This document shows, piece after piece, positions 2,934 to 17,563 of a stretch of 64,000 nt of DNA (its first letter is position 1; the number at the start of each line of letters is the position of its first letter). The notes beneath the pieces were generated by a model. That model was not told the origin of the DNA. It made no database searches and worked only from the letters and a program-made list of their open reading frames with translations. The position numbers and the translations under genes are program-made. This stretch comes from Actinomadura sp. NBRC 104412 (GTDB lineage: Bacteria; Actinomycetota; Actinomycetes; Streptosporangiales; Streptosporangiaceae): positions 124,001 to 188,000 of the forward strand of contig NZ_BSTM01000012.1 in assembly GCF_030269515.1 (NCBI RefSeq). The letters are read 5' to 3'.

Positions 2934-3880
2934 GCCAGGTCGTCGGGACTGGTGTTGGCGCCGCACAGCAGGACCGCGACACGTTCGCCTTCGGCCGGGC
3001 GGTACGCGCCGCTGGCGAGCGCGGCGGCAGCGGCGGCGCCGCTGGGCTCCACCACCAGGCGGTACTCCTCCCAGAGGCGGCGGCGGGTCGCGCTGATCGC
3101 CTCATCGGTGACCAGCACGGAACGGACGCCCGCCCGCGTCACGGCGGCGTAGGGGATCTCCCCGAGACGGCTGGCCCCGAGCGCATCCGCCGCCACCCCC
3201 GACACCTCCACGTGCACGGGTTTCCCGGCCTGTAGTGCCGCGTTCAGTGTGGGGGCGGTATGGGGCTCCACGCTCACGACGTCGGCCCTTCCGTCCAGGG
3301 CGGTGGCGACCCCGGCGATCAGCCCGCCGCCTCCGACCGCGACCAGGACGGTGTCGATCTCACCCTTGGTCTGCTCCATCAGCTCCAAGGCGATGGTGCC
3401 CGCACCCGCGCACATCTCGGGCTGGTCGTAGGGGTGGCAGAAGAGAGCCCCCGTGTCCTTCTGGCGCTTGATGGCGGCCTCGTAGGCGTCGGCGTACTTC
3501 ACCCCGACCTGAACCACAGTCGCACCGAGAGCGCGCAGCCTCGCCACCTTCACGGCAGGCGCGGTCTCCGGCACGTACACCTCGGCCTTGGCGCCCACCT
3601 GTGAGGCGGCGTACGCGAAGGCCAGGCCCGCGTTCCCGCCGGACGCCGCGACGATCCCCGCCTCCGGGAGCTCGTCCGCCTCAAGCGCGGCCAGGATGCG
3701 GTTGAACGCCCCCCTTGCCTTGAAGGAGCCCGTGTGCTGGGTGTGCTCCAGCTTCCACCACATCGTGCCTGCCAGATTCCGGGGCACGAACGCCGCCAGG
3801 TCGAGCCGCATCACGGGCGTCCTCCGGACATGGCCCGCGATCCGCCGCGCCGCATCCCGGACGTCCGAAACGTCGATCAT
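2930..3880 (-). CDS. threonine/serine dehydratase-type PLP enzyme
   Basis: 316 residues, fold type II PLP enzyme that probably deaminates L-threonine or L-serine to the 2-oxo acid. The PLP lysine is K54 in GSFKARGAF. The glycine-rich phosphate-binding loop GGGGLIAG lies at about 178-185, and SGGNAG at about 80-85 contacts the substrate carboxylate. There is no C-terminal ACT domain, so it resembles the catabolic/short form rather than biosynthetic IlvA. Its ATG overlaps the TGA of the upstream sigma factor gene (ATGA, 3877-3880), implying translational coupling. A racemase or a more specialised ammonia-lyase is possible. Confidence 0.88.
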   Translation of the reverse strand: MIDVSDVRDAARRIAGHVRRTPVMRLDLAAFVPRNLAGTMWWKLEHTQHTGSFKARGAFNRILAALEADELPEAGIVAASGGNAGLAFAYAASQVGAKAEVYVPETAPAVKVARLRALGATVVQVGVKYADAYEAAIKRQKDTGALFCHPYDQPEMCAGAGTIALELMEQTKGEIDTVLVAVGGGGLIAGVATALDGRADVVSVEPHTAPTLNAALQAGKPVHVEVSGVAADALGASRLGEIPYAAVTRAGVRSVLVTDEAISATRRRLWEEYRLVVEPSGAAAAAALASGAYRPAEGERVAVLLCGANTSPDDLA

Positions 3881-5163
3881 GTCAACCTCTCACTCGCCGC
3901 CCTCTTCTCAAGGACGGCCCGTTCGGCGGCGTTGCGGGTCAGGGACGCCGCGCGGGCGAACTCGGCCTGCGCCTCCGCGTACCGGCCCAACCTGGACAGC
4001 AGGTCACCGCGCACGCTCGGCAGCAGATGGTACTTCTTGAGCGCGGGCTCGTCCGCCAGCGCGTCCACGGCTTGCAGGCCCTTCTCCGGGCCCTCCGCCA
4101 TGCCGATCGCGACGGCGCGGTTCAGCTCCACGATGGGGGACGGGGCGACCCGCGCGAGGATCCCGTACAGCGCCGCGATCCGCGCCCAGTCGGTCTCCTC
4201 GGCGGTGGACGCCTGCGCGTGGCACGCGGCGATCGCGGCCTGGAGCACGTATCGGCCGGGCGGGCCGCCGAGCTTCTCGGCGCGCAGCAGCGCCGCGTAC
4301 CCCCGGCTGATCAGCAGCCGATCCCACAGCCCGCGGTTCTGCTCCAGGATCGGGACGGGCGCGCCGTCCGGACCGGTGCGGGCCCGCGACCGGGACGCCT
4401 GGATCTCCATCAGCGCGACCAGCCCGTGGACCTCGGCCTCCTCCGGCGCGAGCCCGGCCAGCAGCCGGCCGAGGCGCAGCGCCTCCTGGCACAGGTCGGT
4501 CCGGATGAGGTCGTCGCCCGCGGTCGCCGCGTACCCCTCGTTGAAGATCAGGTAGATGACTTCCAGCACCGACGACAGCCGTTCCGCGCGGTCCTCGCCC
4601 TCCGGCACCTCGAACGGGACGCCCGCCTCCGACAGGGTGCGCTTGGCCCGCACGATCCGCTGCGCGACGGTCGGCTCGGGAACGAGGAACGCCCGCGCGA
4701 TCTCGTCGGTGGCCAGCCCGCCCAGCATCCGCAGCGTCAGCGCGATCCGCGCCGCGGCGGGCAGCACCGGATGGCAGGCGGTGAAGATCAGCCGGAGCAC
4801 GTCGTCCTCGATGCGGTCCTCGTCCAGGACGGCGTCGACGTCCGCGCCGGGACCCACGGCCCCGCCGGTCTCCTGGCGGTGGCCGATCTCCTCCAGCTTG
4901 CGTTCGAGCGTCCGGTCCCGGCGGATCCGGTCCACGGCACGGCGCTTGGCGATGGTCATCAGCCAGGCCCCCGGATTGTCCGGGACGCCGGTCCGCGGCC
5001 ACTGCTCCAGCGCCGTGACCAGCGCGTCCTGCGCCAGTTCCTCGGCGAGCCCGACATCGCGCACCATCCGGGCGACCCCGCCGATGATCCGGGCGGACTC
5101 CAGCCGCCACACCGCGTCGACGGTCCGGTGGACGTCGGGACGGCCGGGATCGGTGATGCTCAC
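3877..5163 (-). CDS. ECF RNA polymerase sigma factor with C-terminal TPR-like extension (ECF42-like)
   Basis: About 428 residues. Sigma region 2 is at the N-terminus (EELAQDALVTALEQWP, then GAWLMTIAKRRAVDRIRR) and region 4 near 130-175 (GLATDEIARAFLVPEPTVAQR). A long helical C-terminal half with a TPR-like last part (LGRYAEAQAEFARAA) makes it more than twice the length of a simple ECF factor. This architecture beside a YCII/DGPF protein is the published hallmark of the ECF42 group, where the C-terminal extension rather than an anti-sigma factor controls activity. I take GTG 5163 as the start; the alternative GTG at 5187 lies inside a 15-bp inverted repeat and would add eight residues. Confidence 0.9.
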   Translation of the reverse strand: MSITDPGRPDVHRTVDAVWRLESARIIGGVARMVRDVGLAEELAQDALVTALEQWPRTGVPDNPGAWLMTIAKRRAVDRIRRDRTLERKLEEIGHRQETGGAVGPGADVDAVLDEDRIEDDVLRLIFTACHPVLPAAARIALTLRMLGGLATDEIARAFLVPEPTVAQRIVRAKRTLSEAGVPFEVPEGEDRAERLSSVLEVIYLIFNEGYAATAGDDLIRTDLCQEALRLGRLLAGLAPEEAEVHGLVALMEIQASRSRARTGPDGAPVPILEQNRGLWDRLLISRGYAALLRAEKLGGPPGRYVLQAAIAACHAQASTAEETDWARIAALYGILARVAPSPIVELNRAVAIGMAEGPEKGLQAVDALADEPALKKYHLLPSVRGDLLSRLGRYAEAQAEFARAASLTRNAAERAVLEKRAASERLT

Positions 5164-5183
5164 GCCGACGATGAGAGCAAACA

Positions 5184-5220
5184 CCACGGCCCCGGCGCAA
5201 ACCGCGCGCCGGGGCCGTGG
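5184..5220 (-). terminator. 15-bp perfect hairpin between the DGPF and sigma factor genes
   Basis: Arms CCACGGCCCCGGCGC (5184-5198) and its exact reverse complement (5206-5220) flank a 7-nt loop. It starts 13 nt after the DGPF stop codon and ends 21 nt before the chosen sigma start, so leftward read-through RNA would fold here. No T tract follows. It may be a partial terminator or attenuator setting the sigma:DGPF ratio, or an RNA-stability element. Confidence 0.6.
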
Positions 5221-5232
5221 GATGCCCGTGGA

Positions 5233-5577
5233 TCACTGCCCGGGAGTGTCCTCGGGGCCGAAGACCTGCTGGATCACGCCCTCGCCGTCGCCGACGATGG
5301 ACCAGAACCGCTTGGACAGCTCGATGGCCTCCTCCTTGCTGCGCACCTCGATCAGCGCGAAGCCCACCACGACCTCCTTGGCCTCGGTGTAGGGGCCATC
5401 GGTGACGGTGATCTTGCCGCCGGAGGACCTGATGGTGGTGGCCCGCGGGTCCAGCCCGCCGGTGGCCAGCAGCACCCCGGACTTGCTCATCTCCTCGATG
5501 AACCGGCCCATCTCCTCGGCCTGCACGGCGTCCGGCTCGCCGCCCGCGGTGTCGGTCGTCATCATCATGAACCGCAT
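5233..5577 (-). CDS. YCII-related / DGPF domain protein, partner of the ECF42-like sigma factor
   Basis: 114 residues from ATG 5577, which has AGGAGAG about 4 nt upstream; an in-frame ATG at 5622 lacks such a site. The chain starts MRFMMMTTD and contains VTDGPYTEAKEVVVGF, whose DGPF-like segment (DGPYTE) defines this YCII-related family. The fold is a small ferredoxin-like dimer. Such proteins are genetically tied to ECF42 sigma factors in actinobacteria and are often part of their regulon; enzymatic activity is unproven. It is followed by a hairpin and then the sigma gene in the same direction. Confidence 0.88.
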   Translation of the reverse strand: MRFMMMTTDTAGGEPDAVQAEEMGRFIEEMSKSGVLLATGGLDPRATTIRSSGGKITVTDGPYTEAKEVVVGFALIEVRSKEEAIELSKRFWSIVGDGEGVIQQVFGPEDTPGQ

Positions 5578-5910
5578 CGTCTCTCCTCTGCCGTCGAGGG
5601 GCCCTTCCGGCCTCCCGTTCACCCACGCGTCGAACGCGGGACGGCCCGATCGACAACCCCCGAGGTGATTTTCCCGAATTTTTCCAGACGAGCTTCCTGG
5701 GGAGGGGTCTACGAGGGGTTTCCCTAGGTGGTGTAAGGAGTGCTTGCCCCCGGACGTCCCGGAGGGGGGAACCGGTCCCCTCGTCGAGGGTCGGCGAGCG
5801 TCCCGGCGCTTGCGGATTCTTTACGGGGACCTTCCGGTGTATTCGCCGCTGTTTCCCGGGCGGTCCCGATTCGCTTTCCCGTTGCGGTGGCGGGCGGCTA
5901 TCGTGCGTGG

Positions 5911-8900
5911 ATGCTCTTCGGGGTGCTGGGTCCGCTGGCGGTGTGGACCGACGCTGGCGAGCCCGTGGCGGTGCCCGGGCTGAAGGTGCGTGCCCTCCTG
6001 GCCGACCTGCTGCTCAACGAGGGGCGGCCGGTGCCCGCCGACCGGCTGATCGACGACCTGTGGGGGGACGAGCCGCCCGGCGACCCGCCCGCCGCGCTGT
6101 CGGCGAAGGTGTCGCAGCTACGCCGCGTGCTGGAGGACGCCGAGCCCGGCGCCCGCTCGCTGGTCGCCACCGGTCCCGCCGGCTACGCGCTGGACGTCGA
6201 CCCCGAGCGTGTGGACGCGCATCGCTTCCAGGCCGTCACCGCGCAGGCCCGTACGGCGATGGACCAGCTCGCCCGCGCGGAGCTGCTCGCCGAGGCGCTG
6301 GAGATGTGGCGGGGCGCGGCGCTGGCCGACCTCGCCGACGAGCCGTTCACCCGTGCCGCGATCGCCCGCCTTGAGGAGCTGCGCCTCACCACCCTGGAAG
6401 ATCACGCGGAGCTGCGGCTGGAACTGGGCGAGCATGGCGCCCTGGCCGCAGAGCTGGGCGCGCTGCTCGCCGACCACCCGCTCCGGGAACGGCTGCGCGC
6501 CACGCACATGCGCGCCCTCTACCGTTCGGGACGGCGGAGCGAGGCGCTGGAGAGCTACGAGCGGCTGCGCACGCTGCTGTCGGACGAGCTGGGTCTGGAC
6601 CCGGGCGCCGAACTGGTCGCGCTGCACCAGTCGATCCTCGTCCAGGCCCCGGAGCTGGACGTGCCAGCGCCCGCGCACGTCGCCGTCGCCGCGCCCGCCG
6701 ACCGTCCCCGCACGAACCTGCCCAAGCCGGCATCCGAGCTGATCGGCCGGGACGACGCCGTCGCCGAGGTCCGCGCGCGCCTGGGCTCGGACCGGCTGGT
6801 CACGCTCACCGGTCCGGGGGGCGTCGGCAAGACCCGGCTCGCGGTCGAGGCGGCGTCGGACGTCCCGGACGCGGCGGACGTGTGGATGGTGGAGCTGGCC
6901 GCCTTCGACCGGTCCGCCACGGCCGACGAGCTCGTCGACGGCGTCCTGAGGGTCCTGGACATACGCGACCAAAGGACGCAGGACCCGCCGCACCGGCGGG
7001 TCGCCGAGGCGGTCGGCGGACGGCCGTTCCTGCTCGTCCTGGACAACTGCGAGCATGTCGTCGATCAGGTCGCCGGGCTGGTGCGGCGGCTGCTCGACGA
7101 CGTCCCCGGCCTGCGCGTGCTGGCGACGAGCCGGGAGCCGCTGGGGCTGGCGGGCGAGGTGGTGTGGAACGTGCCGCCGCTGGACGTCCCGGACCCCGTC
7201 CCGTCCGAGGGGTCGGGGCGGCCCGGTCCCGATCCGGCCGGGCTGGAACGTTCAAGCGCGGTCCGGCTGTTCGTGGCGAGGGCCGCGGCGGCGGCGCGGG
7301 ACTTCCGGCTGGACGACGATTCCGCCGCCGCGGTCGCCGCGCTCTGCCGCCGCCTTGACGGGATTCCGCTCGCCCTGGAGCTGGCCGCCACCCGCGTCCG
7401 GTCGCTGGGGGTGCACGGGCTGGTGTCGCGGCTGGACGACCGGTTCAGGCTGCCGGCCACCGGGCATCGCGGCGCCCCGCGGTGGCAGCGCACCCTCACC
7501 GCGGTGATCGAGTGGAGCTGGGAGCTGCTGTCCGAGCCGGAGCGCGCCGTGCTGCGCCGCCTGTCCGCGCATGCCGGCGGCTGCACGCTGGAGGCCGCCG
7601 AGGCGGTGTGCGCGGGCGACGACATCCCCGTCTTCGACGTGCTCGACCTGCTGGTGAAGCTGGTCGACAGGTCCCTGGTGGTGATGACCGACGAGCCCGG
7701 GGGGCCGCGCTACCGGATGCCGGAGCCGGTCGCCGCCTACTGCGCCGACCGGCTGGCGGAGGCGGGCGAGCGCGAGGAGACGCTGGAGCGCCACCACCGG
7801 TACTACGTCGAGCTGGCCGAGCGCGCCGAGCCGTACCTGTTCGGCCGCGACCAGGATTACTACCTCCGGCTGCTGGACAGCGAGGCCGCCAACTTCCGCG
7901 TCGCGCTGGACGGCCCGGACGGTCTGCGCCTCGCCAATGCGCTCACCTGGTACTGGTTCCTGAGGCGACGCCTGTCGGAGGCCGTACGGTCCCTGGACGC
8001 GGCCATGACCATCGGCGGCGTCCCGGCCGCGCTCGCCCGCGCGAAGGCGTGGCGGGCCGGGTTCGGGATCCTCCTGGGAGACGCCGACTGGCACGCGCGG
8101 CGCGCCGAGGCGCTGGCCGTCCTGGACCAGACCGCCCCGTTCCACCGGGCCCGCGCCCAGTGGTTCCTGGCGTTCGTCGGCGGGGACCTGGAGGACCTCA
8201 ACGCCGGCGAGCGGCTCGCCGACGTGGCGCTGGAGACGTTCCACGAGCACGGCGACCTGTGGGGCGAGGCCGCCACGCTGATCCTGAGGGCGCGGCACGC
8301 GCACGCGCGCGGCGAGCCCGCCGCCCTGGAACGCGAGGGCGAGCGCGCCGCGCGGCTGTTCGGCAAGCTCGGTGACCGCTGGGGCCAGCTCCAGGCGGCC
8401 GAGTGGCTCGCCGCCTACGCCGAGCTGACCGGTGACTACGAACGTGCCGACGCGCTGCAGCGGGACGGCCTTCGCATGGCCGAGGAACTGCACCTGTGGC
8501 CGGACGTCGCGATGCGGCAGGCATGGCTGGGCTGGATCGCCTTGCAGCGGGGCCGGTTCGCCGAGGCCCGCACCTACTGCGAGCAGGTGCAGAGCGCGCC
8601 CCACTCGCCGGCCCAGGTCTTCACCGAGATCGTCCAGGGCTTCGTCGCCCGTTACGAGGGCGACCCGGATGAGGCGGAGTCCCGGCTGAAGGCTCTGCTG
8701 GAGACCGTGCGGGAGGAGGACGGCGCCCAGCCGCCCCTCTTCCTTCCGCTGCTCTACGTGGGGCTTGGGCACGCGGCCGAGCTGCGCGGCGACCTGGAGC
8801 GCTCCGTCGATCTGCACCGCCGTGCCCTGTCCGTCGCCCTCCAACTGGAGGCACCCCGCGACATGGCGTTCTCCCTTGAGGGTTTGGCCAGCGTGCTGAG

Positions 8901-9126
8901 CATCGCCGGGCATCCTGAGTGCTCCGCCCGCTTCCTGGGTGCCGCCATGGCCGTCCGCCGCACGTCCGGCCTGACACCGGGCCCGGCCGAACGGTCCGAC
9001 ATCGCCCGTACCGAGTCGCGGCTCCGGGAGGCCATGGCCGCCGCCGCCATGGAGACCACTCTGAACGCGGGTGCCACCCTCGCCCCGGAGACCTGCCTGA
9101 ACGAGGCCGGCACCATCGCCCTCTGA
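5911..9126 (+). CDS. SARP-type transcriptional regulator with STAND ATPase and TPR domains (AfsR-like)
   Basis: 1071 residues from ATG 5911 (MLFGVLGPLAV). The ORF is open upstream to 5740, but similarity to SARPs begins here. Order: OmpR-type winged helix about 1-95, bacterial transcriptional activation domain about 100-250, NB-ARC ATPase about 275-560 with P-loop GPGGVGKTR and Walker B LLVLDNCEH, then TPR-like helices to the end. SARPs activate biosynthetic clusters; large AfsR-like ones use the ATPase as a switch. It is the first of three STAND proteins around the leftward triad at 11426-14192. No clear Shine-Dalgarno precedes the ATG, so translation may be leaderless. Confidence 0.88.
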   Translation: MLFGVLGPLAVWTDAGEPVAVPGLKVRALLADLLLNEGRPVPADRLIDDLWGDEPPGDPPAALSAKVSQLRRVLEDAEPGARSLVATGPAGYALDVDPERVDAHRFQAVTAQARTAMDQLARAELLAEALEMWRGAALADLADEPFTRAAIARLEELRLTTLEDHAELRLELGEHGALAAELGALLADHPLRERLRATHMRALYRSGRRSEALESYERLRTLLSDELGLDPGAELVALHQSILVQAPELDVPAPAHVAVAAPADRPRTNLPKPASELIGRDDAVAEVRARLGSDRLVTLTGPGGVGKTRLAVEAASDVPDAADVWMVELAAFDRSATADELVDGVLRVLDIRDQRTQDPPHRRVAEAVGGRPFLLVLDNCEHVVDQVAGLVRRLLDDVPGLRVLATSREPLGLAGEVVWNVPPLDVPDPVPSEGSGRPGPDPAGLERSSAVRLFVARAAAAARDFRLDDDSAAAVAALCRRLDGIPLALELAATRVRSLGVHGLVSRLDDRFRLPATGHRGAPRWQRTLTAVIEWSWELLSEPERAVLRRLSAHAGGCTLEAAEAVCAGDDIPVFDVLDLLVKLVDRSLVVMTDEPGGPRYRMPEPVAAYCADRLAEAGEREETLERHHRYYVELAERAEPYLFGRDQDYYLRLLDSEAANFRVALDGPDGLRLANALTWYWFLRRRLSEAVRSLDAAMTIGGVPAALARAKAWRAGFGILLGDADWHARRAEALAVLDQTAPFHRARAQWFLAFVGGDLEDLNAGERLADVALETFHEHGDLWGEAATLILRARHAHARGEPAALEREGERAARLFGKLGDRWGQLQAAEWLAAYAELTGDYERADALQRDGLRMAEELHLWPDVAMRQAWLGWIALQRGRFAEARTYCEQVQSAPHSPAQVFTEIVQGFVARYEGDPDEAESRLKALLETVREEDGAQPPLFLPLLYVGLGHAAELRGDLERSVDLHRRALSVALQLEAPRDMAFSLEGLASVLSIAGHPECSARFLGAAMAVRRTSGLTPGPAERSDIARTESRLREAMAAAAMETTLNAGATLAPETCLNEAGTIAL

Positions 9127-9284: not shown

Positions 9285-11408
9285 GTGTGGATGAGCTGGA
9301 ATCCGGGCGGCGGCGCCCGCGGGCATGTCAACGAGATGGGCGGCACGACCGCAGGGCCGGTTTTCCAGGCCCGGGACGTGCGCGGCGATGTCCATGTCCA
9401 TGGCGGTGGGATTCCCCTGCCGATTCCACGGCAACTGCCCCGTCCCGGCATTCTGGTAAATCGCCAAGAGGCGCTGGCGGCGCTGGACCGGATGGTGTCC
9501 GGGCATGGGCTGGTGGTCGTGACCGGACAGGCCGGGATCGGGAAGACCGCCCTCGTCCTGCACTGGGCGCGCGGCCGTCTCGAAGACTTTCCCGACGGCC
9601 AGCTCTATGCCGACCTGCACGGCCATGCGGGCACGGAACCCGCGCCCCCGGCCGAGGTGCTGGGGCGTTTCATCCGTTCGCTCGGCATCCCCGGCGAGCA
9701 CGTGCCCGCGGGCCTGGGGGAGCGCGCCGCGCTGTTCCGGTCGCTGGTGGCGGGGAGGCGGCTGCTGGTCGTCCTGGACGACGCGTACTCGGCGGCACAG
9801 GTCGTGCCGCTGCTGCCCGGCGGGCCGGGGGCCGCCGCCGTGGTGACGAGCCGGTGGCGGCTGGCCGGGCTGATGATGCGCGGCGCGGGCGTGGTGCGGC
9901 TCGGCCCGCTGGGCGAGGGCGCGGCGCTCGACCTGCTGGGAACCGCGCTGGGCAGCGAACGCGTCGGGCGCCACCGTGAGAAGGCGGGCGAGCTGGTGGA
10001 GCTGTGCGCCCGGTCGCCGCTGGCGCTGAGCGTGGCGGCGGCCCGGCTGGCCGCCCGTCCCGGCTGGTCCCTGGACGACCTGGTGCGCGACCTCGCCGAC
10101 GAGCGGCGGCGGCTCTCGGCGCTGGCGGTCCCGGACGCGGGGGACGAGATGACGATCAGAGCGGCCCTGGAGCTGTCCTACCGCGGCCTGCCGGACAGGG
10201 CGGGGCGGCTCTACCGGTCGCTCGGGCTCTTCCCCGGCACGGCGTTCGACGCCCGCATGGCGGCGGCCCTGTCCGGGGAACCGCTGCCGGACGCGCGTGA
10301 CCTCCTCGGCGTCCTCGACGCCGCCAACCTGCTCGAACACCTACCGGGCGACCGCTACCGGCTGCACGCTCTCGCCCGGCTGCACGCCATGGACACCGTA
10401 CGCGAGCACGACCCGCCGGACGCGCGCGCCGACGCGGTCCGCCGGCTGGTCGAGTGGACGCTCGCGGCCGTGCTCGCGGCCAATGACGCCGCCGCCCCGT
10501 ACCGGAGGCTTCCCGGCCCTCCGGACGCGCCGCCGGGGCCGCCCGAGTTCGCCGACGCCGCCGGGGCGCTGGACTGGCTTGAGCAGGAGTTCCCCACGGT
10601 CAGGGCGGTGGCCAGGCGCGCCCGTGAATCCGGCCTCGACCGTGCGGCGTACCTGCTGGTGGACGCGGCCTGGCCGCTGTTCCTGCACCGGGGCCAGCAC
10701 GCCGAAAGGCTCGACTTCGACCGGGTCGGCCTGGCCGCGGCCCGCGCGCTGGGGGATCGGTACGCCGAGGCCAAGATGCTCAACCGGACCGGCCTGGCCC
10801 TGCGCGCGCTGGGCCGCCCGGACGCGGCGGCCGACGATCTCCGGGAGGCGCTCGCCTTATGGCGGCGGCTGGGCGAGCGGTCCCGTGCCGCCGGTACGCG
10901 GCGCCGCCTCGGCCTGCTCGCGTTCGACCGCGGTGACATGGCCGGGGCGGTCGCCGAGTTCGGCGCCGCCCTGGAGGAGTACCGGGCCGCCGGGGACGAC
11001 CGGCATGTGGCCCTCACCCTGTGCGACCTGGGCGCCGCGCTCATCAGGGACGGCCGTGCGGACGCGGCCGTCCGGGACCTGGGCGAGGCCGAGCGGTTGC
11101 TGTCGGGAACCGGGGACGACGCCTACAACCAGGCCCGCGTGCTCGTGCTCCTCGGCCAGGCACACGCCTCACGCGCGGACCCGGCCACCGCCGAGGACCT
11201 GGTCGTCCGCGGGCTGGAGGGGATGCGGGCGATCGGATCGGCCATCGGCGAGGCGGACGCGCTGCACGTCCTCGGCGATCTCGCGCTCCAGCGGGACCGG
11301 GTCGCCGAGGCCCGCGAGCGTTACGAGCAGGCCCGGTCGATCCTGGCCGGCGCGGGCGCGCCGACCAGGATCCTCGACCGGCGGCTCGCCGACCTCGGCG
11401 GCCCGTGA
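9285..11408 (+). CDS. STAND (NB-ARC) ATPase with C-terminal TPR repeats, no DNA-binding domain
   Basis: 707 residues from GTG 9285; ATG 9291 or 9336 are alternatives. The N-terminus has VFQARDVRGDVHVHGG, a short motif I recall at the front of many actinobacterial STAND proteins, instead of a SARP winged helix. The NTPase has P-loop TGQAGIGKTAL (about 80-92) and Walker B LLVVLDDAYSA. Winged-helix and linker regions follow, then TPR-like repeats from about residue 470. STAND proteins couple ligand sensing to nucleotide-driven assembly; no effector domain is visible, so it may act on the neighbouring SARPs or on an unseen partner. It converges with the PfkB kinase gene 17 bp downstream. Confidence 0.82.
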   Translation: MWMSWNPGGGARGHVNEMGGTTAGPVFQARDVRGDVHVHGGGIPLPIPRQLPRPGILVNRQEALAALDRMVSGHGLVVVTGQAGIGKTALVLHWARGRLEDFPDGQLYADLHGHAGTEPAPPAEVLGRFIRSLGIPGEHVPAGLGERAALFRSLVAGRRLLVVLDDAYSAAQVVPLLPGGPGAAAVVTSRWRLAGLMMRGAGVVRLGPLGEGAALDLLGTALGSERVGRHREKAGELVELCARSPLALSVAAARLAARPGWSLDDLVRDLADERRRLSALAVPDAGDEMTIRAALELSYRGLPDRAGRLYRSLGLFPGTAFDARMAAALSGEPLPDARDLLGVLDAANLLEHLPGDRYRLHALARLHAMDTVREHDPPDARADAVRRLVEWTLAAVLAANDAAAPYRRLPGPPDAPPGPPEFADAAGALDWLEQEFPTVRAVARRARESGLDRAAYLLVDAAWPLFLHRGQHAERLDFDRVGLAAARALGDRYAEAKMLNRTGLALRALGRPDAAADDLREALALWRRLGERSRAAGTRRRLGLLAFDRGDMAGAVAEFGAALEEYRAAGDDRHVALTLCDLGAALIRDGRADAAVRDLGEAERLLSGTGDDAYNQARVLVLLGQAHASRADPATAEDLVVRGLEGMRAIGSAIGEADALHVLGDLALQRDRVAEARERYEQARSILAGAGAPTRILDRRLADLGGP

Positions 11409-11425: not shown

Positions 11426-12355
11426 TCAGCCGTCCCAGCGTCCCCAGGTGACGGGCGGGGCCGCGGCGGCGCGCAGCGCGGCCAGCTCGGCACGGGTCAG
11501 CGACACCGAGGCCGGCAGCCGGTGGCCGACCTTCCAGCCCGCGTGGAGCACGCCGTCCCGCAGCGCCGCGCCCGCGTCGCCGTGCCGGCACCAGCCGTCC
11601 AGGAACGTCGCGAACAGCGCGTCGCCCGCCCCCGAGGTGTTGACGACCCCGGCGGGCGCGACCGCCGGCACCTCGACGAGCCGGCCGTCGCGGAGCCCGG
11701 CCAGCGCGCCCCGCGCGCCCATGCCGACGCCCGCCACCTCGCACCGCGGGTAGCGGCGCAGCAGGTCCGCCACCCAGGCACGTGGATCGCCCAGCCGCTC
11801 GTGGCTGCAGAACACGATCCGCGCCCGTTCCAGCCAGGGACGGTTGTACTCGCCGGCGGGATCGTCGATCAGGTGGACGTCCACCGCGATCGGGATCCCC
11901 AGCGTGTCCGCCCGGGGCAGCAGCGGCCGGACGAACTTGGCGTTGGTCAGCACCAGCAGGTCCGCTCCACGGGCCTGCTCGCGCAGCACCTCGAAGGGAT
12001 ACTCCACCCGGTCCAGCGCCGTGAGATGCGGCATCCCCATCCGCCGCCCGGACGGATCCACCAGCACCACGCCGAGCGAGGACGACGGCGACTCGACGAC
12101 GCCCGGACCGCTCAGCCCGTCCCGCCTGAGCTCCGCCCGGATCGCCTCGCCCGCGGTGTCCCGCCCGACCAGCGTGCACAGGCGCACGTCGTTGCCGAGG
12201 GCGCGGTGGACGCGGGCGATGTGCGACGCCACCCCGGCCGTCCCGCTGCGCGCCCATCCCGGCTTGGCCGAGGGCTCGTAGGTGACGGGGAAGCCGCGCA
12301 CGTTGACGGAGATGTAGAGGCTGACCACGCCCGCGACCAGCACCGTGGGGCTCAT
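11426..12355 (-). CDS. PfkB-family carbohydrate (ribokinase-type) kinase
   Basis: 309 residues. It carries the C-terminal PfkB signature with the catalytic aspartate in NTSGAGDALFATFL and the N-terminal substrate half (GTAGVASHIARVHRALG, then LCTLVGRDTAG). Such kinases phosphorylate a sugar, nucleoside or sugar phosphate with ATP; the substrate cannot be read from sequence. It is the last gene of a leftward triad and its ATG overlaps the TGA of the preceding gene (ATGA, 12352-12355). The GT-B protein upstream suggests it could prepare a sugar phosphate for a glycan or nucleotide-sugar pathway, which is inference. Confidence 0.85.
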   Translation of the reverse strand: MSPTVLVAGVVSLYISVNVRGFPVTYEPSAKPGWARSGTAGVASHIARVHRALGNDVRLCTLVGRDTAGEAIRAELRRDGLSGPGVVESPSSSLGVVLVDPSGRRMGMPHLTALDRVEYPFEVLREQARGADLLVLTNAKFVRPLLPRADTLGIPIAVDVHLIDDPAGEYNRPWLERARIVFCSHERLGDPRAWVADLLRRYPRCEVAGVGMGARGALAGLRDGRLVEVPAVAPAGVVNTSGAGDALFATFLDGWCRHGDAGAALRDGVLHAGWKVGHRLPASVSLTRAELAALRAAAAPPVTWGRWDG

Positions 12356-12972
12356 GACGCGGCCTCCTGGTTCGCCGCTCGCACCTGGACGCCGCCGGAG
12401 ACGAGCAGCTTCCCCGTTCCGCCGCGTTCCGGCACGCCCAGCCCGCCGATGATGAGCACCGAACGGCACAGCTCGCCCGTCGCGAGGCCCGCCGCCGCCC
12501 AGCCGTACAGGAACGAGCCCGCGATCGCCGCCCACGGACCACGGACCCCCTCCCCGCAGGACAGGGTGAACAGGCGGAACCCGGTCCCGGACGCGCCCGC
12601 GTCCCGCACCGCGGCCGTGTGGCCGCACGGAGCCGCGCCCGCCGCGACATGGCAGCCGGGATAGCGCTCCAGCAGCGCGGCGAGCCGTCCCGGCGGCCCG
12701 GGGAGCCCGTCCACCAGCACGTCCGCGACCTCCGCCGCGTGCGTCCTGTGGACGGCGGTCACATGGACGTCCGCGAAGTCCAGCGGCCCCGGCGCGCCGC
12801 CGCGGACCGGCCCGTCGCCGAGCACCATCAGCCGCGGTTCGCGCAGCGGCCCGCCGCGCGGGATCACCAGGACGGCGGCCGGCCGTCCGTCGGGGTGCCG
12901 CGTCCCCTCCCTGGTGAGCGCGAGCGACCGGTCGATCCGGAACAGCCGCGTGGACACCAGCGCGCCGGTCAT
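12352..12972 (-). CDS. conserved-looking protein of unknown function, middle gene of the triad
   Basis: 206 residues; I do not recognise a family. It has a basic N-terminal part (STRLFRIDRSLALTREGTRH) and a central HRTHAAEVADVLVDGLPG. The Cys/Gly-rich segment CGEGVRGPWAAIAGSFLYGWAAAG, shown here only as its key parts CGEGVRGPW and SFLYGW, precedes a C-terminal LIIGGLGVPERGGTGKLLV. The strength of the case is its placement: it starts with an ATGA overlap on the GT-B gene and ends with an ATGA overlap into the PfkB gene, so all three are probably made in fixed ratio. No signal peptide or clear membrane span is present. Confidence 0.75.
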   Translation of the reverse strand: MTGALVSTRLFRIDRSLALTREGTRHPDGRPAAVLVIPRGGPLREPRLMVLGDGPVRGGAPGPLDFADVHVTAVHRTHAAEVADVLVDGLPGPPGRLAALLERYPGCHVAAGAAPCGHTAAVRDAGASGTGFRLFTLSCGEGVRGPWAAIAGSFLYGWAAAGLATGELCRSVLIIGGLGVPERGGTGKLLVSGGVQVRAANQEAAS

Positions 12973-14192
12973 CGTCCACCACCCGCCCGGCTCACCAGGA
13001 AGGGCGGCGGGACGGGACGCGGGCCCGGCACCGCCGCGGGACGCCGCAGCCGCAGCAGCCGGTAGATCAGCCGTTGCAGGTTGCGGTCGAACCGGCCGGG
13101 CTCGGAGGTGATCCGCTCCACCACGGCCCGGTACCGCTCCGGCGTGAACCCGTCCGCGGCCCGGAGCAGTTGCCGCCGCAGCGAGCCACGGCCGGAGACG
13201 CGCGGCGCCACCGCGCCCAGCAGCGCCTGCGCCGAGTCGGGGTTGACCTCCGAGCCCGGGAACCCGCCTAACAGCACGGGCGCCCCGGTCACCGCCGCAT
13301 AAGTAGTTACTGACCCGTGGTCTCCGATGACCCAGTCGGCCGCCGCCAGCACGGCCCGCCAGTCCGCCTCGGGCGGCACCAGGCTCAGGCCCCGCCGCAG
13401 GCAGTCGGCCAGCCACGACCGCACCTGGAACTCGCCGTGGCCGTGCCAGGCGTTCGGGTGCAGGAGCGTCACCACCTGGAACTCCTCTTCGGGGAGTTCG
13501 GAGAGCAGCCGCGGCCACAGGTCCGGGCGGCTGCCCAGCAGCGACCGCGGCCCCCAGGTCGAGGCGACCACCACGAGCTTGCGCCCGTCGCCCACCCCGA
13601 GCGCCATCTTGTAGAGGGGGCGCCGGTCGAGGCTGGCGCGCAGCCGGTCGTGGCACGGGTCGCCCACGACCGACGCCACCGCGAGCGCCTCCGGGCACGA
13701 CCGGGCCAGCTCCCGGCGGTCGTCCCGGTGCGCCAGCACCAGCGCCGCCGGGACGAGCGCGCCGTCGTGGACGAGGCGCTGCGCGTCCAGCCCGTACACC
13801 AGACGCGCACCGGCGGCGCGCCCGGCACGGCGGCTCACCAGCTTGCCGTGCCCCGCGCCGTGCGGCATCACGATCAGGGGCGCGCGCACCCGGTGCACCC
13901 CGCCGTGGCTCGCCGCGATCGCGAGGTCGAAGGTGGTGCTTGTGGCCTGGTCCCAGGGCATCCGCGCCGCCCCGAGCCCGCTGAGGAACTCCGGCACCCC
14001 CGAACCGAACTCGTCGGGCGCCTGGGTGAAGTACACCTGGATCCGGAGATCGTTCTCCAGTACGCCGACGGCGTCCAGCAGCCGCTGCCCCGAGGTCACG
14101 GTGTGCACGACCACCAGCACGCTCTTGCATGTCCGCCGGGTGGCCCATCGATCGGCCTCCGGGCCGATCGGCCCCCGGCGCCATTCGCTCAC
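12969..14192 (-). CDS. GT-B-fold protein resembling CDP-glycerol glycerophosphotransferases (first gene of the triad)
   Basis: About 407 residues. The N-terminal half has SVLVVVHTVTSGQRLLDAV and MPHGAGHGKLVSRR. The C-terminal half has a nucleotide-sugar-site-like stretch (VVASTWGPRSLLG, LLHPNAW, then ADWVIGDHGSVTTYAAVTG with GAPVLLGGFPGSE). DHGSVTTYA at the second Rossmann half is typical of teichoic-acid glycerophosphotransferases and related GT-B enzymes. I choose GTG 14192 because AAAGGG lies 6 nt upstream; ATG 14198 would sit directly on that site. It leads the triad and diverges from the SARP gene at 14444 across a 250-bp promoter region. Actual donor and acceptor are unknown. Confidence 0.75.
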   Translation of the reverse strand: MSEWRRGPIGPEADRWATRRTCKSVLVVVHTVTSGQRLLDAVGVLENDLRIQVYFTQAPDEFGSGVPEFLSGLGAARMPWDQATSTTFDLAIAASHGGVHRVRAPLIVMPHGAGHGKLVSRRAGRAAGARLVYGLDAQRLVHDGALVPAALVLAHRDDRRELARSCPEALAVASVVGDPCHDRLRASLDRRPLYKMALGVGDGRKLVVVASTWGPRSLLGSRPDLWPRLLSELPEEEFQVVTLLHPNAWHGHGEFQVRSWLADCLRRGLSLVPPEADWRAVLAAADWVIGDHGSVTTYAAVTGAPVLLGGFPGSEVNPDSAQALLGAVAPRVSGRGSLRRQLLRAADGFTPERYRAVVERITSEPGRFDRNLQRLIYRLLRLRRPAAVPGPRPVPPPFLVSRAGGGR

Positions 14193-14443
14193 GGACATCC
14201 CTTTCGTGCCCCCTTTGGCCTTGCAGGAGTTGACTGTCCGAAACGCGACCCCGTCAGGAGCATCGGCGACCGACCTTGCGGCATCCCTTGCGGTCCTCCT
14301 TGCGGTGTCGGCGCAGGTGGTGAACGTGGCCCCGGGAAATTCTCCGAATTTGGGGCGATAACGCCGGGCATGCTCTGGAAATCACCCTTTGACGCTGAGA
14401 TGATCTGCGTGTCAAGGGCCCCTCCCGTCACCAGGGGGAGTGG

Positions 14444-17400
14444 ATGGAGTTCCGCATCCTCGGCCCGCTGGAGATGTGGGCGGGCGAGCGCCGCCGGCCC
14501 CTGGGGTACGCGCGGGAACGGCGGCTCCTGGCGATCCTCCTGATGTCACCCGGCAAGCCGGTCGCGACGGAGGCGCTGATCCAGCGGGTCTGGGACGGAG
14601 ACCCGCCCGACCGCGCCAGGGACCGGCTCTACCCGCACATGACCCGCCTCCGGGGCCGCTTGGCCGACCTGGGCGACGTGCGGCTGGAGAGCCGTTCCGG
14701 CGGCTACGTCCTGGAGGTCGACCGGTCGCGGATCGACTACCACCTCTTCCGCGACCTGCGGAGCCAGGCCCGCTCCATGGCAGAGACCGGCGACCGGGAG
14801 TACGCGCTGCGGCTGCTGCGCGACGCCACCGCCCTGTGGCGTGGCGAACCGCTCGACGGGGTGGACGGGACCTGGGCCGAGCAGCGCCGCCAGAGCATCC
14901 GGGACGAGCTGCTCGCCGCCACCCGGGAACGCCTGGAGCTCGAACTGGAGCTGGAGAACCGTCCCGACCTCACCACCGAGCTGAACGACCTGCTCGTCCA
15001 GTTCCCGCACGACGAGAAGCTCGCCGAGCTGCTGATGCTCGCCCTGCACCGGACGGGCCGGTCCGCCGAGGCGCTGCGGGCCTACGACCGGTTCCGCCGG
15101 CTGCTGGACGAGTCCATCGGCACCATGCCGGGACAGGAGCTACGGGAGCTGCACCGGCGGATCCTCAACGACGACCCCGCGCTCATGGCGCCGCCGCGCC
15201 CGCCCGAACGGCGGTCACCGCCCAGCGACCTGCCGCCCGACACCCACACCTTCACCGGACGCGAGGCCGAGTTCGGCGAGCTGATGCGCCTCGCCGCGGA
15301 GAGGTCGGACGCCGTCACCGTCGTGGCCATCTCCGGCATGCCGGGCGTGGGGAAGACGACGCTGGCCGTCCGGCTGGCCCGGCGCCTCGCCCCCGAGCAC
15401 CCGGACGGCCAGATCTTCCTCCATCTGCGCGCGCACGATCCCGGCCAGGAGCCGATGGAGCCCATCGCCGCGCTCGACCGGCTGCTGCGTTCCCTGCGCG
15501 TGCCGCAACACCTGATACCGAACGATCTCGACGGCAGGTCCGCGCTGTGGCGCACCGAGACCTCGCGGCGCCGGCTGCTGCTGGTGCTGGACGACGCGCT
15601 GGACACCGACCAGGTCAGGCCGCTGCTGCCCGGCGCGCCCGGATGCCTGGTCGTGGTCACCGGCCGACGCCGGCTGGTCGGCCTGGACGCCGTCCGGCCG
15701 CTCACGCTGCACCCGCTGCCCCCTGAGGACTCCGCGCTTCTCCTGGCCAGGGTCGCCGGGCCGAGGGTGACACCGGGCGCCCCCGGCGTCGACACGGTCA
15801 CCAGGCTGTGCGGTCACCTGCCGCTCGCGTTGCAGATGGTCGGCCTTCGCCTGAGGCACCGCGAGAGCTGGACCGCCGTGGACCTGGCGGAGTCGCTCGG
15901 CGAAGGGCGCAGGCTGGAGCGGCTGCGGGCCGAGAACCGTGAGGTCGCGGCGGCGTTCCGGCTGTCGGTCGAGGGACTGGACGCCGCCGCGCGGCAGGCG
16001 TTCCTGCTGCTGGGGCTGTATCCCGGCGCCGAGGTGACGGCGGACGCCCTGGCCGTGATGTTGGGCGGCGAACGATCCGGGGCCGAGGCGTGCCTGGAGC
16101 TCCTGCACGACCACAGTCTGATCATCGAGCCGAGCCCCGGCCGCTACCGGTTCCACGACCTTCTGCGCGAGTACGCGCGGGACCTCGCCGGACGGGAACC
16201 GTCCCTCGACCGGGACGTGGCTTTGGACCGGTTGATCGACCACTGCCTGGCCACCGCCGACCGTGCCGACCGGATCCTGTTCCCGTGGTCCTCGCGCCCT
16301 CCGGTCGAGGTCCGTTCACCCGGCATGGACGGATTCTCCCTGGACAGCGAGGAGGACGCGCGGTCCTGGTTCGAGGCCGAACTGGAGAACCTGATCGGCG
16401 TGGCGCGCTTCGCCGCCGACGAGGGCCGCCCCCGGCGTGCGGGCCTGCTGGCCAGGGCACTGGAGCGCTTCCTGGAGGACACCGGGCGCTGGTCGGACGC
16501 CGTGCGGCTGCACACCACCGCGGTGGAGGCATGGCGGCGGGTCGGCGATCGGAGATCCCTGGCCCGCGCCCTGCTGGACCTGGGCCACGTCCGCTGGAGG
16601 ACGGGCCGTTACGAGGACGCCCTGGCGGCGGCGACGGAGGCCCTGCACACCTCCCGCGCGGTCGGCGACGACGCCCTGGCCGCCGAGTCCCTGGACCTGC
16701 ACGGCAGGATTCACTACACCCGCTCGGAGTTCGACGTCGCCGTCGGGTACTACGAGCAGGCGCTCGTCCTCCGGCGGGAGGCGGGCGACCGTTCGGGCGA
16801 GGCCCATCTCCTCAGCCACCTGGGCATCGTGCTCTACCATCTCGGCCGCTATCCCGAGGCGATGGAGCGCATGGCCCTGTCCCTGACGCTGACCGAGGAG
16901 GCGGGCGACGTCCGCGGCCGTCAGATGGCCCTCAACAACGCCGCGGAGATCGAGTACAGGCTCGGGCTGTACGACGTGGCGCTCCGGCACTACGAGCAGG
17001 TCGCGGAGATCGGCGAGCTCAGCCGCCAGCACCAGGCCGTCTGGTGCAACAACATCGCGACCATCTACAGCAGGACGCAACGCCCGGCCGAGGCCATCAC
17101 CCAGTATCGCCGAGCGATCGCTATTTATACCGAAATTGGCGACAGGCGGGGTGAAACCGACTCGCTCAACGGGATCGGCGCCTGCTATGCCCAGATGGGA
17201 CGGGACGGCGAGGCGTTCATCCACCATCAGAAAGCCTTGCGGCTCGCCCGGGAGATCTCCGAGAAGTACGAGCAGAGCTGGGCGCTGCGGGGCATCGGTG
17301 AGGTCCATCATCGGGCCGGACGGCACGGTCAGGCGCTGAGCCTTTTCGACGAGGCGCTGGTAATTGCACGGTCAATAGGTGACACGTTCCAAGAGGCGCG

Positions 17401-17563
17401 CGTACTGGAAAGCATGGGTGAGGCCATCGCCCGCCTCCACGGCCCCGCCGAGGCCGAGGCGGCCTTCGGACAGGCCCTTGAGCTGTACGAATCACTCGGC
17501 GTCCCCGAGGCGGAGGCGCTACGTCAACGCCTCGCCGACCCGCCGGACGCGGCGGGATCGTGA
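14444..17563 (+). CDS. second SARP-STAND-TPR regulator (AfsR-like), divergent from the triad
   Basis: 1039 residues. Winged helix about 1-90 (MEFRILGPLEMW, RLLAILLMSPGKPV), activation domain about 95-245, NB-ARC ATPase about 270-560 with P-loop SGMPGVGKTTLA and Walker B LLLVLDDALDTDQ, then at least six TPR-like repeats with the GxxxxAxxxYxxAL pattern to residue about 1030. GGGGGAG lies 5 nt before the ATG. Position and divergence make it the natural candidate activator of the triad at 11426-14192, and possibly of the peptide gene at 17709. It differs from the SARP at 5911 in domain spacing and is not a recent duplicate. Confidence 0.9.
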   Translation: MEFRILGPLEMWAGERRRPLGYARERRLLAILLMSPGKPVATEALIQRVWDGDPPDRARDRLYPHMTRLRGRLADLGDVRLESRSGGYVLEVDRSRIDYHLFRDLRSQARSMAETGDREYALRLLRDATALWRGEPLDGVDGTWAEQRRQSIRDELLAATRERLELELELENRPDLTTELNDLLVQFPHDEKLAELLMLALHRTGRSAEALRAYDRFRRLLDESIGTMPGQELRELHRRILNDDPALMAPPRPPERRSPPSDLPPDTHTFTGREAEFGELMRLAAERSDAVTVVAISGMPGVGKTTLAVRLARRLAPEHPDGQIFLHLRAHDPGQEPMEPIAALDRLLRSLRVPQHLIPNDLDGRSALWRTETSRRRLLLVLDDALDTDQVRPLLPGAPGCLVVVTGRRRLVGLDAVRPLTLHPLPPEDSALLLARVAGPRVTPGAPGVDTVTRLCGHLPLALQMVGLRLRHRESWTAVDLAESLGEGRRLERLRAENREVAAAFRLSVEGLDAAARQAFLLLGLYPGAEVTADALAVMLGGERSGAEACLELLHDHSLIIEPSPGRYRFHDLLREYARDLAGREPSLDRDVALDRLIDHCLATADRADRILFPWSSRPPVEVRSPGMDGFSLDSEEDARSWFEAELENLIGVARFAADEGRPRRAGLLARALERFLEDTGRWSDAVRLHTTAVEAWRRVGDRRSLARALLDLGHVRWRTGRYEDALAAATEALHTSRAVGDDALAAESLDLHGRIHYTRSEFDVAVGYYEQALVLRREAGDRSGEAHLLSHLGIVLYHLGRYPEAMERMALSLTLTEEAGDVRGRQMALNNAAEIEYRLGLYDVALRHYEQVAEIGELSRQHQAVWCNNIATIYSRTQRPAEAITQYRRAIAIYTEIGDRRGETDSLNGIGACYAQMGRDGEAFIHHQKALRLAREISEKYEQSWALRGIGEVHHRAGRHGQALSLFDEALVIARSIGDTFQEARVLESMGEAIARLHGPAEAEAAFGQALELYESLGVPEAEALRQRLADPPDAAGS

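What the first reader, a model, noticed from the sequence alone, without database searches (positions are those of the whole stretch)
11426..14192. Coupled triad of GT-B protein, unknown protein and PfkB kinase, wrapped by three STAND proteins
Seen: three leftward genes joined by two ATGA overlaps (12969-12972 and 12352-12355), diverging from a SARP-STAND-TPR gene and flanked by another STAND and another SARP-STAND. Known: SARPs activate biosynthetic clusters, and STAND ATPases act as signal switches. Inference: the triad is a small pathway that makes a phosphorylated or phosphoglycerol-like compound under STAND control. The middle protein has no family I recognise. This is my best candidate in the window for an undescribed system.
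Basis: partly seen in the sequence, partly recalled or inferred. Interest (0 to 1): 0.65.

Follow-up and report, generated by a model that had tools for sequence, protein, structure and literature searches.

The report
Glycosyltransferase–dead-kinase module with NLR-like partner
The three genes are the variable arm of a widespread, apparently undescribed actinobacterial module in which a sugar-transferase-like protein, its dead-kinase partner and (here) a live kinase sit beside an NLR-like switch protein carrying an amyloid-signalling-like tag and under their own dedicated gene switch, which makes a signalling or conflict role more likely than an ordinary metabolic pathway.

Summary
In detail: G (12969-14198), M (12352-12972) and K (11426-12355) form one leftward operon with two ATGA overlaps. 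The "unknown" middle protein is not familyless: it is a truncated PfkB homologue of its neighbour K (profile comparison E 2.8e-14) that lost the catalytic GxGD. G is a GT-B protein nearest TagF/TarL, with most of their motifs kept. The conserved unit is not the triad alone: in 90 of 99 loci G converges on a STAND-TPR gene (ST), including 29 of 33 in an independent sample. ST usually starts with a motif resembling bacterial amyloid-signalling (BASS/RHIM-like) sequences, also present in STAND, TIR and CHAT-like proteins and in one membrane protein elsewhere in this genome. Upstream of G lies a unique SARP-type operator (three CTTGCGG heptamers), conserved in many relatives; S2 is the likely activator. 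K is dispensable; M occurs alone, with K, or fused to G. The S1 neighbour is incidental. I read the module as a SARP-switched enzyme/pseudoenzyme unit whose product or complex is watched by, or activates, an NLR-like protein. Function is inferred; no product or effector is shown.

The parts
12969..14198 (-). G: GT-B fold protein, TagF/TarL-like (polyol-phosphate or sugar transferase)
   Evidence: AF2 pLDDT 93.8 / pTM 0.92; Foldseek TagF TM 0.61, UDP-GlcNAc 2-epimerase 0.57, MshA E 3.6e-12; profile match to PF04464 proteins E 1.1e-5; H113 51/55, G179/D180/D184 57/57, H247 53/57, D293 53/57, S296 52/57 conserved
12352..12972 (-). M: truncated PfkB homologue (pseudo-kinase), equivalent to the C-terminal half of K, GxGD lost, D-x-H retained
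   Evidence: hhalign M vs K prob 98, E 2.8e-14; AF2 pLDDT 87.6; no GAGD in M
11426..12355 (-). K: PfkB carbohydrate kinase, catalytic GAGD present, nearest solved relative acarbose kinase Mak1
   Evidence: PF00294 E 1.7e-15; 6wb4 E 2e-9; catalytic Asp 30/30
9285..11408 (+). ST: STAND (NB-ARC) + TPR protein, convergent to the operon
   Evidence: convergent in 90/99 loci
9327..9407 (+). N-terminal BASS/RHIM-like motif of ST (VNEMGGTTAGPVFQARDVRGDVHVHGG)
   Evidence: present in 57 of 90 convergent STs; whole-genome profile hit 5e-12
14444..17563 (+). S2: SARP (BTAD) + NB-ARC + TPR regulator, divergent from G
   Evidence: SARP gene next to G or beyond ST in 62 of 104 loci
14275..14305 (.). SARP-type operator: three CTTGCGG heptamers, 12-nt period (GCAAG repeats reading toward G)
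   Evidence: 0 mismatches, 0.01 expected in the window; only occurrence in the 7.85 Mb genome; conserved in relatives
14259..14264 (-). possible -10 element of the G operon (GATGCT), about 10 nt from the nearest heptamer
   Evidence: semi-conserved in the intergenic alignment; inference

Best explanation
The triad is the enzyme/pseudoenzyme arm of a conserved actinobacterial signalling or conflict module. Shown from sequence: G is a TagF/TarL-like GT-B protein with most active-site motifs kept; M is a PfkB-derived pseudo-kinase; K, when present, keeps a PfkB active site; the operon has its own SARP-type operator and usually a SARP-STAND gene (S2) nearby; and G is almost always convergent to a STAND-TPR protein, ST, mostly carrying an N-terminal motif resembling amyloid-signalling motifs. 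Inferred: S2 senses a cue and switches on G-M(-K). M binds the substrate or product and steers G. G (helped by K) transfers a phosphorylated polyol or sugar group to an acceptor. ST monitors that product or the G-M complex and, when tripped, oligomerises through its NTPase and nucleates its motif, either self-assembling or templating an effector with the same motif. In this genome the only other detected carrier is a small two-TM protein encoded elsewhere (contig C40).
For: Convergent STAND in 61/66 loci and 29/33 independent loci, against 14 such genes in this genome. A PfkB-derived partner is found first-pass in 68/99 loci, in four layouts (K+M 22, K only 7, M as its own gene 28, M fused to G 11). 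M-K homology; M never has GAGD, K has the catalytic Asp 30/30, D-x-H kept in both. G fold and motifs. Operator unique in the genome, correct strand only, 11-12 nt spacing, associated with SARP genes, Fisher p 0.003; SARP sites are heptameric direct repeats, some with three repeats (PMC10972967). ST motif; the same motif in a TIR protein (L145), a CHAT-like protein (L151), other STANDs and the two-TM protein, the pattern described for BASS motifs (PMC7889193).
Against: No product, acceptor or ligand is known. About a third of convergent STs lack a detectable motif. Most relatives with a motif-bearing ST have no second motif carrier detected (only the top 150 candidates per genome were scored), so the in-trans effector is a one-genome observation and that protein lies on another contig. 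I could not assign the motif to a numbered BASS family. PADLOC has nothing for G, M or K. G looks catalytically competent, which also suits plain biosynthesis.
Confidence: 0.45

Rival explanations
1. One reading: a small biosynthetic pathway. K phosphorylates a sugar or cyclitol, G transfers a phosphopolyol or sugar, M is an accessory subunit, and the SARP/STAND proteins are only regulators.
For: SARP operator and SARP-STAND gene; G and K active sites intact; K nearest to acarbose kinase; SARPs classically switch on biosynthetic clusters (PMC10972967).
Against: K is missing in most loci, M is catalytically dead, no other biosynthetic gene family recurs beside the core, and the most constant partner is a non-SARP STAND with an amyloid-like motif.
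Confidence: 0.3
2. An anti-phage (NLR-like) immune module: G-M is guarded bait or a sensor of a phage-altered nucleotide-sugar or surface polymer, and ST triggers cell death.
For: STAND with BASS-like motif shared with TIR, CHAT-like and TM proteins; patchy distribution (139/299 genomes of the order), up to six copies per genome, also on Streptomyces megaplasmids.
Against: No PADLOC hit; a SARP-type operator is unusual for defence genes; no defence-island test was run.
Confidence: 0.2
3. Unrelated neighbours: STAND genes are common in actinomycetes and the convergence is accidental.
For: Actinomycete genomes carry several STAND genes; the window itself has three.
Against: 90/99 convergent across many genera, including an independent sample, with 14 such genes in a 7.85 Mb genome.
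Confidence: 0.02

Closest known systems
CDP-glycerol/ribitol phosphotransferases TagF and TarL (PF04464)
   Same: GT-B fold (TM 0.61 to TagF), HG..K, GxPxxD-like, HP and xDxxS motifs
   Different: Below the Pfam cut-off (2 of 57 members match, best E 0.0015); convergent with a STAND gene; substrate unknown
PfkB/ribokinase family; acarbose kinase Mak1 (6wb4)
   Same: K: fold family, GAGD, D-x-H as in Mak1
   Different: M lacks the N-terminal half of the kinase and GxGD; K occurs only in part of the loci
Bacterial NLR amyloid signalosomes (BASS; Dyrka 2020 as reviewed in PMC7889193)
   Same: STAND with an N-terminal short RHIM-like motif that also occurs in TIR, CHAT-like and small TM proteins
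   Different: No motif-bearing effector adjacent; the neighbours are G/M/K; motif not assigned to a BASS family and no fibril data
Large SARPs / AfsR (PMC10972967)
   Same: S2 architecture BTAD-NB-ARC-TPR; heptameric direct repeats upstream of the target operon
   Different: Far below the NCBIfam AfsR cut-off (568 vs 1430 bits); repeat CTTGCGG differs from the AfsR site CGTT(T/C)ATCG
STAND ternary and conflict systems of multicellular bacteria (PMC7159879, PMC8195603)
   Same: STAND-centred, multicellular actinobacteria, enzyme domains as sensors or effectors
   Different: Searching those texts for PfkB (first) and GT-B, SARP and AfsR (second) found no system with this gene set

Membership tests
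PfkB carbohydrate kinases (K) | PfkB profile and GxGD catalytic motif | tested here: met
   PF00294 57.6 bits vs cut-off 25.8; Asp 30/30
PfkB carbohydrate kinases (M as an active member) | Complete fold and GxGD motif | tested here: not met
   N-terminal half missing, GAGD absent; homologous but not an active member
Glyphos_transf PF04464 (G) | Score above the Pfam gathering cut-off | tested here: not met
   P0003 0 families; 2/57 members at E 0.0015
Glyphos_transf PF04464 (G) | GT-B fold with HG, GxPxxD, HP and xDxxS motifs | tested here: met
   remote homologue, substrate untested
BASS amyloid signalosome (ST) | Short motif at the N-terminus of an NLR/STAND | tested here: met
BASS amyloid signalosome (ST) | Same motif in an effector encoded by an adjacent gene | tested here: not met
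   no other ORF in the locus carries it; one TM protein elsewhere in the genome does
BASS amyloid signalosome (ST) | Motif forms amyloid and cross-seeds | not testable with these tools
   needs peptides
Large SARP (S2) | BTAD + NB-ARC + TPR | tested here: met
Large SARP (S2) | Binds heptameric direct repeats upstream of its target | tested here: inconclusive
   operator found and associated with SARP genes; binding not shown
AfsR equivalog | NCBIfam NF053617 cut-off 1430 bits | tested here: not met
   568 bits for S2

The most novel reading that the evidence does not exclude
A new class of bacterial NLR-type signalling module in which a teichoic-acid-synthase-like transferase, held by a pseudo-kinase derived from a sugar kinase, is the input of an amyloid-nucleating STAND switch, with the whole unit armed by its own SARP operator.
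Probability: 0.3. Interest if true: 0.8.

Novelty: new variant of a known kind. Interest (0 to 1): 0.55.

Why it matters
The roles of bacterial NLR-like STAND proteins with amyloid-type motifs are largely unknown (PMC7889193 calls the biological role a major blind spot). Here such a protein has a defined, conserved enzymatic partner and a dedicated promoter, so its input can be tested. The case also shows a sugar kinase turning into a regulatory pseudoenzyme in natural steps (full kinase only, kinase plus pseudo-kinase, pseudo-kinase only, fused to the transferase), and gives likely identities to proteins that curated family libraries do not name.

Tried and rejected
Three-STAND wrap: S1 (5740-9126) is not conserved next to ST elsewhere; dropped. 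M as a new fold: Foldseek found nothing significant, but the sequence profile showed PfkB ancestry. First operator searches at 11-nt spacing missed the window array, whose period is 12; repeated with the right spacing. A motif-bearing effector inside the loci: none found. Known defence system: no PADLOC hit for G, M or K. RNA element at 4-20 kb: no Rfam hit. Plasmid neighbourhoods were uninformative (one partly annotated, one with no annotation). Literature searches with STAND/GT/PfkB/SARP terms found no description. Iterated M profile found 24 of the 31 missing partners, but it includes G-tail sequence from fusions, so only the first-pass 68/99 is claimed.

Full report
Check of the observation. 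The three leftward genes are present and translationally coupled. The start of G is more likely ATG 14198 than 14192. Domain scans give PfkB for K, nothing for M and G, and STAND/TPR, with or without BTAD, for the three neighbours.

Conservation. G relatives were fetched by protein scans and wider regions, gene-called and clustered. G is nearly always followed by a convergent STAND-TPR gene. A second sample, drawn from 299 genomes of the order (139 have G, 36 of 62 genera, up to six copies), was fetched for an independent test and scored with profiles. After removing duplicates, a convergent STAND is present in 61/66 and 29/33 loci. This genome has only 14 P0005-like places, so chance is excluded. 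S1 does not recur; S2-type SARP-STAND genes sit either divergent from G or beyond ST. In the first 40 relatives, all 13 genomes with a strong ST-motif hit also have G; part of that motif profile came from these loci.

The middle protein. M matches the C-terminal half of K: hhalign probability 98, E 2.8e-14, and reciprocal profile hits. All 30 K proteins keep the catalytic Asp; no M keeps GAGD; the D-x-H motif is kept in both and is also seen in acarbose kinase, the nearest solved relative of K. M is predicted with good confidence (pLDDT 87.6), but Foldseek has no significant match; acarbose kinase has the highest probability (0.38) among the matches shown. M-like domains occur as separate small genes or as C-terminal extensions of G in loci without K. 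The partner, where it can be detected, is always PfkB-derived, while kinase activity is optional. Some Actinomadura loci also have tandem G genes; the first copy has lost the PHGA histidine in the four aligned, a second enzyme/pseudoenzyme pair.

G. The model (pLDDT 93.8) is GT-B, nearest to TagF, TarL, UDP-GlcNAc 2-epimerases and MshA. Profile comparison with PF04464 proteins gives E 1.1e-5 and aligns GDPxxDR with GYPRND and GDHGS with TDYSS. It does not reach the Pfam cut-off, so I call it TagF-like, not a member.

ST motif. The N-terminus of ST carries N-x3-G-x3-G-x2-VQARDI-x-GG-x-H-x-H, found in 57 of 90 convergent STs. A published BASS3 example is VDLRDAKGVQVGDGNVQINRF (PMC8086366); the resemblance is in layout, not a formal family match. 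The motif also occurs in other STANDs, a TIR protein, a CHAT-like protein and, in this genome, at the C-terminus of a two-TM protein on contig C40. Related two-TM proteins occur in 16 of 59 relatives, some fused to STAND domains. This matches the published picture of BASS motifs on NLRs, BELL, CHAT and TIR proteins (PMC7889193). No motif-bearing effector is adjacent.

Control. Three CTTGCGG heptamers lie at 14275-14305 between G and S2 (0.01 expected in the window) and nowhere else in the 7.85 Mb genome. Relatives conserve the array while the flanks drift, including Streptomyces loci where S2 sits on the other side of ST. Repeats occur only in the G orientation (38 of 104 upstream regions, 0 on the reverse strand, 0.1 in shuffles) with 11 or 12 nt spacing, and they associate with SARP genes (p 0.003; related loci are not fully independent). 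Known SARP sites are heptameric direct repeats, sometimes three, with 4-15 nt spacers (PMC10972967). S2 is therefore the likely activator of G-M-K; binding is inferred.

Verdict. The anatomy is firm; the mechanism is inference. I favour a SARP-armed enzyme/pseudoenzyme unit coupled to an NLR-like switch over a free-standing pathway, because the STAND partner is the most constant element and the kinase is dispensable.

Noticed in passing
L126/L170 (own genome C40:24024-24341): Small two-TM protein with the ST-type motif at its C-terminus; the only other significant motif carrier found in this genome.
   Followed up: partly
L145 (G008:C44), L151 (G022:C55): A TIR protein and a CHAT-like protein carry the same motif as ST.
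   Followed up: partly
L091, L092, L095, L098: Tandem G genes; the first copy has lost the PHGA histidine (pseudo-G).
   Followed up: partly
L178, L179, L184: The two-TM domain (GLDxADKxASVxGA) is fused to the N-terminus of STAND/NACHT proteins; free copies have variable amyloid-like C-terminal repeats.
   Followed up: partly
window 4027-5727 +: Long ORF antisense to an ECF sigma factor gene (3877-5187, DUF6596); probably spurious.
   Followed up: partly
own genome C40:42064-42417: Partial PF04464 match 18 kb from the motif-bearing two-TM gene; may be coincidence.
   Followed up: no
window 23276-25885 +: Histidine-kinase-like protein with a nitrate/nitrite sensing (NIT) domain.
   Followed up: no
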